A stretch of DNA of 64,000 nt from Armatimonadota bacterium (GTDB taxonomy: Bacteria; Armatimonadota; HRBIN16), in contig BPGT01000002.1 of the NCBI GenBank assembly GCA_026003175.1, positions 744,001 to 808,000 on the forward strand, in the 5' to 3' direction. A model generated the notes under the pieces. It was given only the letters and a program-made list of their open reading frames with translations. It had not been told where the DNA came from and made no database searches. The translations under genes and the position numbers were made by a program. Every line of letters begins with the position of its first letter. Position 1 is the first letter of the stretch. This document shows, one piece after another, positions 8,024-19,953 of the stretch.

Positions 8024-8032
8024 GTGAGTGCC

Positions 8033-9106
8033 ATGAGCCAACCGGTGTATAAGGTAGTCGTAGTGGGCATGGGCAAGCGCGGGATGCACCATGCCACTAC
8101 CTTTCACGCCAACCCGCGCTTCGAAGTGGTGGGCATCTGTGACATCGACACCGCCAAATTGCAATCCGCCGCCGCGCAGCTAGGCAACCCGATGACCAGC
8201 ACCGATGCCGCAGACCTGCTGGCGAAAACGAAGCCCGATGTGTTTTGCCTTACCACCATGCCCAATATCCGCTACTCGATGATAAAATTGGCGGTAGAGT
8301 CGGGCGTCAAGCTCATCGCCTACGAGAAGCCGATGGCGCTGAGCCTGCGCGAGGCACGCCAGATTATGGAACTGGTGCGGGGGGCAGGCGTCAAAACGGT
8401 AGTCAGTCACCAGCACCGCTACGGCGCACACTACCAGAAGGTAAAGCAAATTATCGCCAGCGGCGCCATCGGGCGGGTGCATACCATGTACGGGCATGCC
8501 ACCGGCTGGATGTTGCACATGATGACACACCTCATCGACTACATGCGCTGGTACAATGACAACGCCGAGGCGGAATGGGTGATGGCGCAGGCAAGCGGGC
8601 GTGGCAAACTGTCCGACAACCACCCTTCACCCGACTACATCGCCGGCGTCATCCACTTTGCCAACGGCGTGCGCGGCATCGTGGAGTGTGGCGCAGGCGC
8701 ACCCGATGTACCCGAGGTGGACTACTGGTGGCGCAAGGCGCGAATCGGCGCACAAGGTACAGAGGGCTTTGCCGAGGTGCTAACGGGCGGAGGCTGGCGC
8801 GCTGTGACCAGAGAAGGCTTGATGCAGGGACCCGGCACGATGGATTACAACCTCGACATGCCCCCCTACATCGAGGACATGGCGCGCTGGCTAGACGACG
8901 ACAGCGCGGTGCACCCCTGCAACGGCGAGGACGCCTACAAGGGCTTCGAAATCATGATGGCGATGGTGCGTTCGGTGGTAGAGCGCGGGCAAGTTGCCCT
9001 CCCCCTCCCCGACGGACCGCCGGAGATAGAGGAACTTTCCAAGGTGCTGCCGGATAAACCAGTGCTCCTTTCCATGCCGGAGAACCGCAAAGAGTATCCG
9101 GTATAG
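8033..9106 (+). CDS. Gfo/Idh/MocA-family oxidoreductase
   Basis: 357 residues. The N-terminal Rossmann fold carries VVVVGMGKRGMHH, and the conserved EKPMALSLREAR segment follows (Lys of the EKP motif, around residue 100). A C-terminal alpha/beta substrate domain follows. Members oxidise or reduce sugars and inositols with NAD(P). ATG 8033 is preferred because AGGTGAG lies just upstream; a GTG at 8024 overlaps that site. It is in an operon with the DegT aminotransferase and ends before a hairpin at 9123. Confidence 0.9.
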   Translation: MSQPVYKVVVVGMGKRGMHHATTFHANPRFEVVGICDIDTAKLQSAAAQLGNPMTSTDAADLLAKTKPDVFCLTTMPNIRYSMIKLAVESGVKLIAYEKPMALSLREARQIMELVRGAGVKTVVSHQHRYGAHYQKVKQIIASGAIGRVHTMYGHATGWMLHMMTHLIDYMRWYNDNAEAEWVMAQASGRGKLSDNHPSPDYIAGVIHFANGVRGIVECGAGAPDVPEVDYWWRKARIGAQGTEGFAEVLTGGGWRAVTREGLMQGPGTMDYNLDMPPYIEDMARWLDDDSAVHPCNGEDAYKGFEIMMAMVRSVVERGQVALPLPDGPPEIEELSKVLPDKPVLLSMPENRKEYPV

Positions 9107-9122
9107 CCAGCGACACAATGTG

Positions 9123-9148
9123 GAGGGTCACGCTCCGTCGTGACCCTC
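9123..9148 (+). terminator. Hairpin, probable terminator
   Basis: GAGGGTCACG and CGTGACCCTC form a perfect 10-bp stem around a 6-nt loop, 17 nt after the oxidoreductase stop. The following T run is weak (gcgtttc), so termination may be only partial. Confidence 0.55.
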
Positions 9149-9265
9149 GCGTTTCAAAGCACGAAGAGGTTTATCCAACACACAGTTGCTGCGGAGACAA
9201 CACGCTTGCACGAGAAGGATAAGAGTGTGGTAGCTGGTAAAATGTAAACCGAGAAGAAACCGTGG

Positions 9266-10636
9266 ATGCGCATGGAGGCTGAGGGTTATTCCGTGGAACC
9301 AACACTTGATCTGACACCACCGGCAGTAGACTCGGACAGCTTGTCACTGGATACAGCGAAGGCAACGCGATGGCTGTCCAGCGGAGGGCGAGAGCGTGCG
9401 TTTGGTGTAGTGTACACACCACGCCATCTCGTAGATTTCATGGTACACCTGGCTTATCCCCATCGCAAAGCGTGCCGAGTGCTGGAACCTGCGTGCGCTG
9501 ATGCTCCCTTCCTGGCGTCTTTTGCCCAGCATTACGGTCGTGGTCATGAACTGGTTGGAGTGGAGATAGACCCTGAACACCTCAAGCATGCGCGCTGGAA
9601 TGTGCCACAGGCGACTTTTGTAGAAGCAGACTTCCTGTTGTGGGATCCCCGTGCACAGTTCGATATCGTTCTCGGTAACCCGCCGTATGGTATCATCGGC
9701 GATGCTTCGCATTATCCGATTCACGTGCTGAAGGAGCGCAAAAAGCTTTATCGCCAGCGGTCGCGTACGTGGTATGGTAAATTCAACATCTACGCGGCTT
9801 TCATCGAACACGCCGTAGAATTGCTGGCTCCTGATGGCAGACTGGTCTTCGTTGTGCCTGCCAGCTGGCTGGTATTGGATGATTTTCAACGGTTGCGCTC
9901 CTTTCTGGCAGAGAGTGGCAAGTTGCATGTGTATTACTTAGGTAAGGTATTCCCGAAACGTAACGTGAGTGTTGTGGTGCTGGTAGTTGAGAAGGGTGGT
10001 CAGGGGTTACTACTGTATGACGGTACAGAAGAACTGAAGGTATTCAAGCCAGAGTATTCCGGTGAGATGATTCGATTTGAGACGGCTGAGTGGCTACGAT
10101 TTGAGCGAAGAGGTATACCGCTCGAGGAACTCTTCGAAATCCACTTTGCGGCCCGTAGCCCCGAGGTGCGTAAGCATCCTGCCGTGGTTTCCGAATCGCG
10201 CCCCGGGTATGTGCCTGTGCTGACAGGGAGGAATCTACATGCTGGCAGGATAGACTATGAGTCTGGCTACTCCGGGCTATGGATGCCTCGCGAACGAGCA
10301 GCCGAATTACGTTCGTTTTATGGCTTTCCCCACCTGGTAGTGGCACACACGAAGGGTGCGAGGGTCGTTTGCGCGTATGATGAGCGTTGTTACCCATGGC
10401 GTGAGGAGTTTCATCTCGTGCCGAAGGTGGGCAGCCCAGACCCAGTTGCCATTATGGAGTACTTGAACAGCGACCTGGTTCAGCACTATGTGAAACAACT
10501 CTACAGAGATTTCGTGCCTCATCTGACTGCAACCATGCTCAAAAGGGTACCTGTTGATCGCGCTGTAGCACGTTTTGCCACCGACAACATGCAGCTTCTA
10601 CTTCTCGATGAGGAGGCTATTCATGTCAACAGCTGA
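9266..10636 (+). CDS. TaqI-like adenine-specific DNA methyltransferase
   Basis: 456 residues. SAM motif I is VLEPACADAPF (72-82), the catalytic motif IV is NPPYG (138-142), and the C-terminal TaqI-type specificity domain includes FAARSPEVRKHPAV, PVLTGRN and YRDFVPHLTATML. From memory these segments match M.TaqI of Thermus aquaticus almost word for word, so N6-adenine methylation of TCGA is expected. The last 14 nt overlap the endonuclease gene. An alternative start is ATG 9272. Transfer from a thermophile such as Thermus, or shared ancestry, is inferred. Confidence 0.93.
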   Translation: MRMEAEGYSVEPTLDLTPPAVDSDSLSLDTAKATRWLSSGGRERAFGVVYTPRHLVDFMVHLAYPHRKACRVLEPACADAPFLASFAQHYGRGHELVGVEIDPEHLKHARWNVPQATFVEADFLLWDPRAQFDIVLGNPPYGIIGDASHYPIHVLKERKKLYRQRSRTWYGKFNIYAAFIEHAVELLAPDGRLVFVVPASWLVLDDFQRLRSFLAESGKLHVYYLGKVFPKRNVSVVVLVVEKGGQGLLLYDGTEELKVFKPEYSGEMIRFETAEWLRFERRGIPLEELFEIHFAARSPEVRKHPAVVSESRPGYVPVLTGRNLHAGRIDYESGYSGLWMPRERAAELRSFYGFPHLVVAHTKGARVVCAYDERCYPWREEFHLVPKVGSPDPVAIMEYLNSDLVQHYVKQLYRDFVPHLTATMLKRVPVDRAVARFATDNMQLLLLDEEAIHVNS

Positions 10637-11471
10637 GACACTATTAAAAGGGTTCGAAGGATTTTTAGGAACGATTCCACTCGACAAGTACCGACAGGAA
10701 CTTCTCTCCGTCAAAACAGTGGAGCAGGACCTGCCAAAAGATTTGAACCCTTTGCCTGACATTTATAAGCAGTACTGGACGGATTCATCTAGACAGTTTC
10801 CTGATTACGAATCGTTCTTCGAGCAATGGTGGAAAGACCATCTTGCACCCATTGATGAATTCGTTAAGCATTATTTCTGGGGATGTTCTTACGAATTTGT
10901 GCGTCTCGGCTTCAAAGCGAGACTATACCGCACATTAATCTCGGTGCTTACACAATTTCACTTCAGCTATGCCTGGCGTGCCTTTTGCACTTTGCCGATC
11001 GAAACGTCTGCTGAAATGGATATGCATGGCATTGACGCTCTGGTGCGGTTTCGGGACATAGGTGTGGCATTGCAAATGAAAAAGGAAACTTACCGACCAG
11101 AAGCGCGTAAATCAGGACGCTTTGTGCAGAAGCAATTGCATGCTAAAATACTGATTGAACTGCCATATACTATTGTATCGTCAAAAGAGTGGGAGCAACG
11201 CAAAAATAGGGCTAGGGATAAACGCAAAAAAGAAGAATATGCTCTTTTCCACTGGTTATCTACTGAACTGCAAAGGTGGCTACCCAACGGCTTCGTCGTT
11301 TTCCAAGACAAATATCCAAGGCTTGTGGAGCAATTCATTGAAGACTTCTTATCGGGCGATTATGCCAGCCAAGACCATATCGGTTGGGACGAACTACTGA
11401 AGAAGATACACACCCTGTCAGGCGATCATCTCCCTGTAGATGATGGTTCACTCCATGGCAGCGCTCAGTAA
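10623..11471 (+). CDS. TaqI-like type II restriction endonuclease
   Basis: 282 residues. The N-terminus contains KTVEQDLPKDLNPLPDIY, a hallmark of the TaqI endonuclease family, which cuts TCGA. A PD-(D/E)xK-like core follows, with Asp in GIDAL (about 138) and Lys in QMKK (about 153). The start ATG 10623 is chosen because GAGGAGG lies 7 nt upstream; it overlaps the methylase gene. Base composition is visibly more AT-rich than its neighbours, a sign of acquisition. Together with the methylase it forms a complete type II system. Confidence 0.9.
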   Translation: MSTAETLLKGFEGFLGTIPLDKYRQELLSVKTVEQDLPKDLNPLPDIYKQYWTDSSRQFPDYESFFEQWWKDHLAPIDEFVKHYFWGCSYEFVRLGFKARLYRTLISVLTQFHFSYAWRAFCTLPIETSAEMDMHGIDALVRFRDIGVALQMKKETYRPEARKSGRFVQKQLHAKILIELPYTIVSSKEWEQRKNRARDKRKKEEYALFHWLSTELQRWLPNGFVVFQDKYPRLVEQFIEDFLSGDYASQDHIGWDELLKKIHTLSGDHLPVDDGSLHGSAQ

Positions 11472-11516
11472 TAGAGAACTGAATCTGTCGGCAGTTCAGG
11501 ATTGTGAGGACTTCAG

Positions 11517-12340
11517 ATGTTCGCGTACATTCTCCTGCACTTCATGATGACGTGTTCTGTGACCGGTCTCTGTCAGGGGGATAACGGTTCTTCTTTGAAC
11601 CCCGCCGAAGATGCCCGCCTGCGCCAGACGATATCCGTTGCTTACGCGCCGACACCGCTCGGCGAATTGTTGCAAAAGTTGTCACGACAGGCAGGCGTAA
11701 CCCTGCGGGCGGAGCGTACTGTCGCCGAACACCGGGCTATTCTGGTAGCGAATGGCAGAAATAGCGTCGCTGGAGGGTTGGCAGCTGGAGATGCTCGATA
11801 GGAAGCTGGAACTTACGACTCCAGTCAGTGGACTGCAGCGCACTGGCGAAGGCATATGTGCCAGCCTGATTCGTGAACGCCCTTTGAGGTTTGTCCTGCT
11901 TGCGCTTGGCGCGCTGCCAGCCCCCCAGAGAGATGCTCTGCTTCGAGAGACACCAATGCCTGTAGCTGCTATGCCTCGCCGCGCTCAACAGTTTATGATA
12001 TGGGCTGTTTACACCCTGGACGCGCAAAATGCTCTGGAAGCAGGAACATCGCCCACTACCGAACATGGAAGGAGGTATCGCTGGAACAGATATCGCGTTG
12101 TCGGTACAAGTGGAGGAACGCTTCGCTACGGAAGTAGACAATGCCCGCGTACCACCCGATGTGTCGAGTGCGCTATTCAGGAGCGAAACGACGGTCCATG
12201 AATGGGTATCGCAATTGCCTGAAGAAGAACGTAAGAAATATCTGCGCCGCCAGCACTCTTTCAGCGCCTCGTTCTCTCTGGTGAGTAGACAGGGTAGAAG
12301 GTACGTTGGTTCTGTGAGCTGGAACCGATGGATGGATTAG
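11517..12340 (+). pseudogene. Decayed gene with STN-like N-terminus
   Basis: Protein-like sequence passes through three reading frames in turn. 11517 to about 11745 has a signal peptide and a short STN-like segment (LGELLQKLSRQAGVTLRAE). About 11750-12050 continues as AEIASLEGWQLEMLDRKLEL. About 12030-12340 runs as SVQVEERFATEVDNARVPPDVSSALF. Each switch is a net +1 shift, so at least two frameshifts break one ancestral secreted protein of about 270 residues. STN segments occur in secretins and in peptidoglycan or TonB-related proteins. The function is unknown. Confidence 0.6.
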
Positions 12341-12341
12341 C

Positions 12342-12370
12342 TTGCCTCGCTTCCCGAAAGTTGCTATAAT
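12342..12370 (+). promoter_or_regulatory. Promoter of the DUF3866 gene
   Basis: TTGCCT (12342-12347), 17 nt, consensus TATAAT (12365-12370). The predicted start near 12377 gives a leader of about 34 nt, which rules out translation from any codon upstream of 12411. Confidence 0.75.
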
Positions 12371-12410
12371 GGGGCGCGTCCCAAAGTGGGAGCGAGGGAG
12401 CGAGGAGCAC

Positions 12411-13515
12411 ATGATTTCCAAAGCGATTGGCACGGTCACCGAGATACGTCAAACACGCGCCGGGGTACAGGAACTGGTCGTACAAAGCGGCGAAGAAATC
12501 CGCCTGGCGTTGAATCATATCAACCTGACCGGCGTTGCTGATGTCGGCGATGCGGTGGTGTTGAATACCACCGCTACTGAACTGGACCTCGGTTCTGGCG
12601 GATACGACTTTGTGATTCACAACCTGACCCGCCCGCTGGAACCCACCCCGATGGACGGGCACATCGTTCGTCTGCGCTATACTCCCATGCAACACACCGT
12701 GCTGGCAGTGGAAGAACCGGCGTCCCCCCATCACGAGGTGATGCAGAATGCGGCTTCTCTGGATGGGATGCCAGTGGTTTGCTGTGGACTACACAGTCAG
12801 ATTGCTCCGGTCGCCGCTGCCCTGCACCACTACACAGGGGGAAGATGTCGCGTGGTGTACGTGATGACGGACTCGGCGTCTCTGGCGCTGGGGGTCAGTC
12901 ATCTGGTTCCCGCGCTTGGCGAGGCGGGGCTGTTGCACGGCGTGATCACCGTTGGGCAGGCGTACGGCGGGGACCTGGAGGCGGTGAACGTATACAGCGG
13001 ATTGCTCGCTGCGCGGCACGTCATGGGAGCAGATGTGGCTATTGTGTCGCAGGGCGTGGGGCAATACCGGCACGGCGACCACTTTCGGCTTTTCGGGTAT
13101 TGACCAGGGTATTGCTCTGAACGCTGCTGCGTCGCTGGAAGGGATACCCGTCGCCTGCCTGCGCATCAGTTTTGCCGACCCACGCCCGCGTCACTATCGC
13201 GTCAGTCATCATACGCTGACCGTGCTGAGTAAAGTAGCGATGACACGCTGTCACGTGCCGGTGCCGGAGCTCGCCCCCCCTCGCCTCTGGGAGGTATTGG
13301 GGCAGTTGGAAGAGCGCGGCATCGCCGCGAAGCACCTGATACGGGTGCTGGACGGCTCGGCAGCGCTGGAAGTGTTGCGAAAGTACCGTATCCACGTCAC
13401 CACTATGGGGCGTACCGTGCTGGAAGACCGCGAGTACTTCCTGGCGGCTGCTGCCGCCGGCGCACACGCTGCAGAACTGGCGACACTGCCCGAAACGGTC
13501 AAGCAGGTGGGATGA
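12411..13515 (+). CDS. DUF3866 family protein, split by a one-base frameshift
   Basis: Translation from ATG 12411 (CGAGGAG upstream) runs as MISKAIGTVTEI to a stop at 13103. The family's conserved C-terminal half (GFSGIDQGIALNAAASL, LRISFADPRPRHYRVSHHTLT) continues in the next frame to 13515. Joining the frames at the G run 13058-13061 with one G fewer restores GVGNTGTATTFGFSG and a protein of about 367 residues. DUF3866 has no established function. Either the gene is broken or a base was miscalled; it is reported as one gene. The NUDIX gene overlaps its end by 4 nt. Confidence 0.75.

Positions 13516-19878: not shown

Positions 19879-19953
<75 letters not shown>

What the first reader, a model, noticed from the sequence alone, without database searches (positions are those of the whole stretch)
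9266..11471. TaqI-like restriction-modification system outside Thermus
Both genes closely match TaqI components, including the KTVEQDLPKDLNPLPD segment of the endonuclease and long identical stretches of M.TaqI. TCGA specificity can be predicted. The endonuclease gene is AT-richer than its surroundings and is followed by decayed sequence, which suggests horizontal acquisition.
Basis: partly seen in the sequence, partly recalled or inferred. Interest (0 to 1): 0.5.

Follow-up and report, generated by a model that had tools for sequence, protein, structure and literature searches.

The report
TaqI-type restriction system in Armatimonadota
This bacterium carries an intact TaqI-like methylase and endonuclease pair, an ordinary DNA-defence system; less ordinary is that its sister species all keep a TaqI-like methylase while most lack the endonuclease.

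Summary
Window 9266-10636 encodes an M.TaqI-type adenine methylase (60% identical to Thermus M.TaqI) and 10623-11471 an intact RE_TaqI endonuclease, overlapping by 14 bp; TCGA specificity is inferred, not shown. Recent import from Thermus is not supported: the methylase groups with those of the same Armatimonadota genus, and the endonuclease tree is compatible with that. The AT-richness of the endonuclease is a family trait (10 of 10 pairs), and the decayed sequence downstream is a remnant of one of the genus's own paralogous genes. Mobility within a thermophile pool is plausible: codon usage is atypical and the closest relative lacks the module. The more telling result lies outside the coordinates. 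All 10 genus genomes carry an M.TaqI-like methylase, only 3 carry RE_TaqI. The window's own genome holds a second, solitary M at a locus where a sister species still has M plus R; 851 bp holding the endonuclease are missing at one point and the methylase's last residues are replaced. This is a clear case of in-situ R loss leaving a conserved solitary methylase, a route that a 2014 survey judged rare. A new member of a known kind, of modest interest.

The parts
9266..10636 (+). M gene: M.TaqI-type adenine-N6 DNA methyltransferase, 456 aa, NPPY motif, TaqI_C target-recognition domain
10623..11471 (+). R gene: TaqI-type endonuclease (RE_TaqI), 282 aa; D133, D138, Q151, K154 invariant in the aligned family
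10623..10636 (+). 14-bp overlap of the end of M with the start of R; a GGAGG just upstream of the R start lies inside M (possible translational coupling, inferred)
9157..11596 (.). stretch absent from the closest relative G184, whose sequence joins window 9156 to 11597 with a few bp between; extent of the module, or of a deletion in G184
11517..12340 (+). remnant of a gene of a paralogous family of mostly about 600-760 aa proteins found throughout the genus (looks like an STN-type N-terminal domain by eye; no Pfam hit); G184 retains 82 bp of it
8024..9106 (+). left flank: GFO/IDH/MocA oxidoreductase, 91-97% identical in 8 of 9 other genus genomes (not found in G183)
12342..13515 (+). right flank: DUF3866 gene, matched in all 10 genus genomes; here split into two frames

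Best explanation
The pair is an intact Type IIP restriction-modification system of the TaqI kind. M methylates adenine (m6A) at TCGA in the host genome; R cuts unmethylated TCGA in incoming DNA. R is probably read from the same transcript, with its ribosome-binding site inside the end of M. Its ancestors have long circulated in Armatimonadota: M is carried by every sampled species of the genus, at several loci, while R has been lost repeatedly, leaving solitary methylases under purifying selection. In the window's own genome the second copy (C2:1299737-1300999) is such a leftover. Shown: gene identity, intactness, conserved positions, synteny and the R-loss scar. Inferred: TCGA specificity, activity, expression and defence role.
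For: Family matches over full length. R keeps D133, D138, Q151 and K154, invariant in 10 of 10 aligned R proteins; these lie four below the numbers I recall for R.TaqI (D137, D142, K158; recalled, nothing found). R model pLDDT 87.5; weak structural matches dominated by PD-(D/E)XK nucleases (Hjc Z 7.1, PspGI Z 5.8). M keeps NPPY; 151 positions are invariant between it and seven other M proteins that sit beside an R gene (intact or broken), Thermus included. M-like matches at E below 1e-100 in 10 of 10 genus genomes, RE_TaqI in 3 of 10 and in 9 of 291 genomes of the phylum. R-loss scar: L040 (G187, M+R) and L029 (G000) are collinear except for 851 bp holding R; the M ends ...LQLFTEGNL* against ...LQLVLRCSSS*; dN/dS of these two M genes 0.12. 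At least 5 changes of R presence on the M tree, 24 rows scored. TCGA observed/expected 0.69 in G000 (464 kb), 0.62 and 0.75 in the other R+ genus genomes, 0.72-0.98 in 7 M-only genus genomes.
Against: No activity, methylation or expression data. No sigma-70-like promoter was found in 9050-11650 (a consensus scan that may not suit this phylum). TCGA avoidance is weak evidence: GGCC, GATC and mostly CTAG are avoided far more strongly, and G065, with no M.TaqI-like match, has TCGA at 0.06. The window M and its genus relatives differ far more than their neighbours (dS 3.2 against 0.30 for the flanking gene, G000 against G184), so it is not a simple vertical ortholog at one place. In the R tree window R + G180 R has only 80/88, and a grouping of window R with the G187/G173 R proteins is not rejected (p 0.127).
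Confidence: 0.88

Rival explanations
1. A recent horizontal import of the pair from Thermus or a Thermus-like donor.
For: Atypical GC3 and codon score for this genome; module absent from the closest relative at this junction; shared family with Thermus.
Against: M is 60% identical to M.TaqI but 67-78% to nine of the twelve other genus M genes (two are at 59%, one at 50%). The tree puts it among genus M genes (100/99); Thermus sister relation AU p 0.0375. Low GC of R is general, 10 of 10 pairs. No match to R in plasmids or phages, none to R or M in viral contigs.
Confidence: 0.05
2. Recent arrival in this species from an unsampled relative inside the same thermophile pool (intra-genus or intra-phylum transfer), rather than old residence at this site.
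For: Three separate places of TaqI-type genes compared in one genus (window site; SDR-PfkB; SBP-POR), each patchy: SBP-POR has M in 3 genomes and is joined without M in 3; SDR-PfkB is empty with 8 bp between in G184. High M divergence against conserved flanks.
Against: G184 keeps an 82-bp piece of the neighbouring remnant that starts inside that gene, which fits one deletion in G184 taking M, R and the 5' part of that gene, hence presence before the G000/G184 split. An unrelated truncation could also explain it.
Confidence: 0.4
3. R is a decayed or silent gene and only the methylase matters.
For: R is absent or broken in many relatives; R differs more than M (53% against 69% identity, G000-G180).
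Against: R is full length, the family-invariant positions are kept, GGAGG before the start, confident model.
Confidence: 0.1

Closest known systems
TaqI R-M system of Thermus aquaticus (M.TaqI, PDB 1aqj/2ibs; R.TaqI)
   Same: Same two families, NPPY, TaqI_C domain, full RE_TaqI profile; M then R with overlapping genes, as I recall for Thermus.
   Different: 60% identity for M; different phylum; R is 282 aa against 263 for TaqI (PMC5587805); specificity untested.
TaqI-type pairs in other lineages (Armatimonadetes SKYB58, Bacteroidota MAGs, Kryptonia, WOR-3, Persephonella, Desulfofervidaceae; loci L012-L018)
   Same: M directly followed by R in all 7 records; R 35-58% identical to the window R in the five that were aligned whole (SKYB58 through its duplicate L046).
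   Different: Other genomes; two of the seven R genes are in pieces (L014, L018). They show that TaqI-type systems outside Thermus are not unusual.
Solitary (orphan) methylases left by R-M decay
   Same: The second M in this genome (L029) and the M genes of seven other genus genomes have no RE_TaqI beside them, and those seven genomes have none at all.
   Different: Here the loss is caught with an intact sister locus and a scar; Oliveira et al. 2014 (PMC4176335, passages read) report that solitary genes rarely arise this way, while Fullmer et al. 2019 (PMC6471742, abstract read) describe patchy R-M and conserved orphans in Halobacteria.

Membership tests
TaqI endonuclease family (PF09573) | Full-length match to the RE_TaqI profile | tested here: met
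   228.9 bits, profile 1-229 of 229, cut-off 26.1; Thermus composti rings as positive control
TaqI endonuclease family (PF09573) | Acidic and lysine positions of the active site kept | tested here: met
   D133, D138, Q151, K154 invariant in 10 of 10; that these are the catalytic ones of R.TaqI is recalled
TaqI endonuclease family (PF09573) | PD-(D/E)XK fold | tested here: inconclusive
   Best Z 7.1 to Hjc over 91 residues; no Foldseek match with E up to 0.001
TaqI endonuclease family (PF09573) | Cleaves TCGA | not testable with these tools
   needs biochemistry
M.TaqI-type adenine methylase | N6_Mtase/Eco57I domain with NPPY and TaqI_C domain | tested here: met
M.TaqI-type adenine methylase | m6A at TCGA | not testable with these tools
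   needs methylation-aware long reads or a protection assay
Type IIP R-M system | Separate M and R genes, adjacent, both open | tested here: met
Solitary methylase from R loss (second M, L029) | R present at the syntenic locus of a relative, absent here, M still open and constrained | tested here: met
Recent import from Thermus | M sister to Thermus M.TaqI | tested here: not met
   tree; AU p 0.0375; one Thermus sequence only

The most novel reading that the evidence does not exclude
TCGA adenine methylation is a retained, genus-wide mark in this Armatimonadota genus: a TaqI-type methylase outlives its endonuclease again and again, at several loci and under purifying selection, so that it has been taken over for host use (regulation, or standing protection against neighbours' TaqI-type enzymes), and the window locus is one of the few places where the original defence function still stands.
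Probability: 0.3. Interest if true: 0.5.

Novelty: new member of a known kind. Interest (0 to 1): 0.3.

Why it matters
On its own, one more TaqI-type system. Its value is as a natural series: within one genus there are intact M-R pairs, a single-point R deletion beside an intact sister locus, solitary methylases at shared sites and empty sites. That makes it directly testable whether solitary methylases come from decay of R-M systems, and whether they are kept for protection or for regulation. The intact R is also a candidate TCGA cutter from outside Thermus, perhaps thermostable if the host is a thermophile (not shown here).

Tried and rejected
Rejected: R low GC as proof of transfer (R lower than M and than its locus in 10 of 10 pairs). 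Rejected: R swapped onto a resident M. Pairwise identities first suggested it (R 59% to SKYB58 and Flavobacteriales against 53% to G180), but the R tree pairs the window R with G180 (80/88) and grouping with the f13/Bacteroidota R proteins has AU p 0.0198.

Nowhere: viral contigs with the R alignment and with M, plasmids and phages with R: no relatives. M was not searched against plasmids and phages. Direct repeats that would mark an insertion in 9000-12500: none convincing. The only tRNA in the window is at 19879-19953, far away. HaeIII-type endonuclease as a cause of strong GGCC avoidance: 0 of 10 genus genomes. Papers: TaqI residue numbers, 0 papers; the 'TaqI-like'/'RE_TaqI' search listed 10 of 527, none on such systems outside Thermus by title; Armatimonadota R-M search, listing only. 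I make no claim that such systems are unreported; REBASE could not be consulted.

Rows dropped or faulty: the row 'B locus FAD neighbour' is out of frame through my coordinate error and is not used. One search held fewer genomes and was extended. In one search the G185 sample (27 kb, GC 0.44) is unlike its genus and may hold foreign contigs; it was kept in the test (R+ against M-only, n 3 against 7, p 0.033, species not independent). G065 (no M.TaqI-like match, TCGA 0.06) goes against the avoidance argument and was kept among the 10 'none' genomes. Genomes were sampled unevenly, 6 to 464 kb. For the M tree N-terminal stretches of G181, G185 (170 residues) and G186 (70) were cut off before alignment, and some rows are fragments; the G187 C70 fragment was not put in the tree. 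G179 was not scored.

Full report
What is there. Two overlapping genes on the + strand. The first, 9266-10636, encodes a 456-residue M.TaqI-type methylase: TaqI_C, Eco57I and N6_Mtase domains over their Pfam cut-offs, PDB best match M.TaqI with E 5.6e-145 over residues 37-434, 233 of 391 aligned residues identical, longest identical run 10. The second, 10623-11471, encodes a 282-residue RE_TaqI protein covering the whole Pfam profile at 228.9 bits. The start at ATG 10623 follows a GGAGG that lies inside M, so R is probably translated in coupling with M (inferred). No solved R structure was found by sequence. The AlphaFold2 model is confident (pLDDT 87.5), and the weak structural matches are mostly PD-(D/E)XK nucleases. 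D133, D138, Q151 and K154 are invariant in 10 of 10 aligned R proteins.

Where it lies. The window is C2:744001-808000 of a 4.1-Mb, 7-contig genome. The phylum label Armatimonadota rests on G063, a genome of the same phylum whose contig has the length and the gene layout of the record titled Armatimonadetes bacterium SKYB58. In G179, G181, G184, G185 and G187 the left flank (GFO/IDH/MocA gene) and the right flank (DUF3866 gene) are neighbours without M or R; in G180, G182, G183 and G186 they are on different contigs or not both found, so they do not test the site. In G184 the sequence joins window 9156 to 11597 and keeps 82 bp (11597-11678) of the decayed gene, then joins to about 12332. That gene belongs to a paralogous family of mostly about 600-760 aa proteins in the genus; several matches to paralogs begin at residues 10-12, before the point at which G184's remnant starts, residue 26. 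One deletion in G184 that removed M, R and the start of this gene explains this simply; an unrelated truncation is not excluded.

How it relates to others. RE_TaqI is found in 9 of 291 genomes of the phylum, 3 of 10 in the genus. M-like matches at E below 1e-100 occur in 10 of 10 genus genomes; of the 51 other relatives searched, G061 and G062 also reach that level and G205, G206, G207 have weaker clear matches. In the M tree the window M sits in a 100/99 clade with G182, G184, G183 and G179, next to G181/G185 (87/85); G180/G186 pair with 96/98; the nine-row genus group as a whole has only 58/15. Thermus M.TaqI lies outside; forcing it beside the window M gives AU p 0.0375. The R tree pairs the window R with G180 (80/88) and G187 with G173 (92/92), compatible with the M tree at this depth. 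On the larger M tree window M and G180 M alone are not sisters (AU p 6e-7), because M genes without R lie between them. The window M is far older than the species split: dS 3.2 against G184's M, where the flanking gene has 0.30 (near saturation, so a rough figure).

The second locus. This genome has another M.TaqI-type gene at C2:1299737-1300999. Its neighbourhood is collinear with G187, where M is followed by R: L040 1-1888 and 2740-5052 match L029 5824-7711 and 7712-10022, so 851 bp holding R are missing at one point. The methylase's C-terminus in this genome runs into what is the end of the neighbouring SDR gene in antisense (...LQLVLRCSSS* against ...LQLFTEGNL*), which is what a deletion leaves and not what an insertion of R would be expected to leave. 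The same junction is empty in G184 (8 bp between SDR and PfkB sides) and holds about 500 bp without a recognisable M or R in G179. dN/dS between the two M genes is 0.12, and the solitary M differs at 0 of the 151 positions that are invariant in eight M proteins that sit beside an R gene, in one of them broken. A third site, between an SBP gene and a pyruvate:ferredoxin oxidoreductase gene, holds a solitary M in G184 and, by synteny at contig ends, in G179 and G187; SBP and oxidoreductase are joined without M in G180, G181 and G186, and in the window's genome they lie on different contigs. On the M tree R presence changes at least 5 times over 24 scored rows. For G179 the contig ends inside M, so absence of R there rests on the whole-genome search alone.

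Composition and sites. R is lower in GC than its M and than the rest of its locus in 10 of 10 pairs. GC3 of the window M (0.548) and R (0.468) is low for this genome (143 genes, mean 0.70, sd 0.06), and the solitary L029 M is equally atypical (0.533), whereas solitary M genes of the other genus species are within 0.04 GC of their locus. So some transfer into this lineage is likely, but the donor is not shown. TCGA observed/expected is 0.69 in this genome, 0.62 and 0.75 in the other two R+ genus genomes, 0.72-0.98 in seven M-only ones; ten genomes without M matches give 0.90-1.13 except G065 at 0.06. This fits pressure at TCGA but does not prove it.

Against the literature. TaqI is a 263-aa Type IIP enzyme cutting TCGA (PMC5587805, abstract and passages). 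TCGA m6A methylases are known far from Thermus, for instance in Helicobacter pylori (PMC3936762, passages). Oliveira et al. [quoted passage not shown] the L029/L040 pair is a clear instance of that rarer route. Fullmer et al. 2019 describe patchy R-M genes and conserved orphan methylases in Halobacteria (PMC6471742, abstract).

Verdict. An ordinary, intact TaqI-type R-M system, correctly spotted. The Thermus-import story is not supported; transfer within a thermophile pool is plausible. The repeated absence of R with M kept across the genus is the part worth following.

Noticed in passing
G000 samples (464 kb, window included) and nine other genus genomes: Very strong avoidance of GGCC (observed/expected 0.05-0.13), GATC (0.14-0.38) and mostly CTAG; G173, G205, G061, G063 and G065 also avoid GGCC and ACGT strongly, while G045, G156, G139, G082, G059 and G008 do not avoid GGCC much. 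No RE_HaeIII in the genus.
   Followed up: partly
window 12342-13515: DUF3866 gene split into two overlapping frames (profile 2-187 and 185-318), a single open frame in most relatives: frameshift or assembly error.
   Followed up: no
L034:1740-3602, L035:7492-9327: M.TaqI-type open frames of G185 and G181 have an N-terminal extension of about 170 residues with no Pfam match in that part.
   Followed up: no
L032:5762-7956: G184 has a divergent M.TaqI-like gene (50% to window M, 25 changes at 151 conserved positions) directly followed by a D12-class methylase gene: possibly another specificity.
   Followed up: no
L013:439-2528, L014:4730-6761: Contigs titled Bacteroidota/Flavobacteriales carry M-R genes nested among Armatimonadota family f13 genes: cross-phylum transfer or misbinned contigs.
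   Followed up: no
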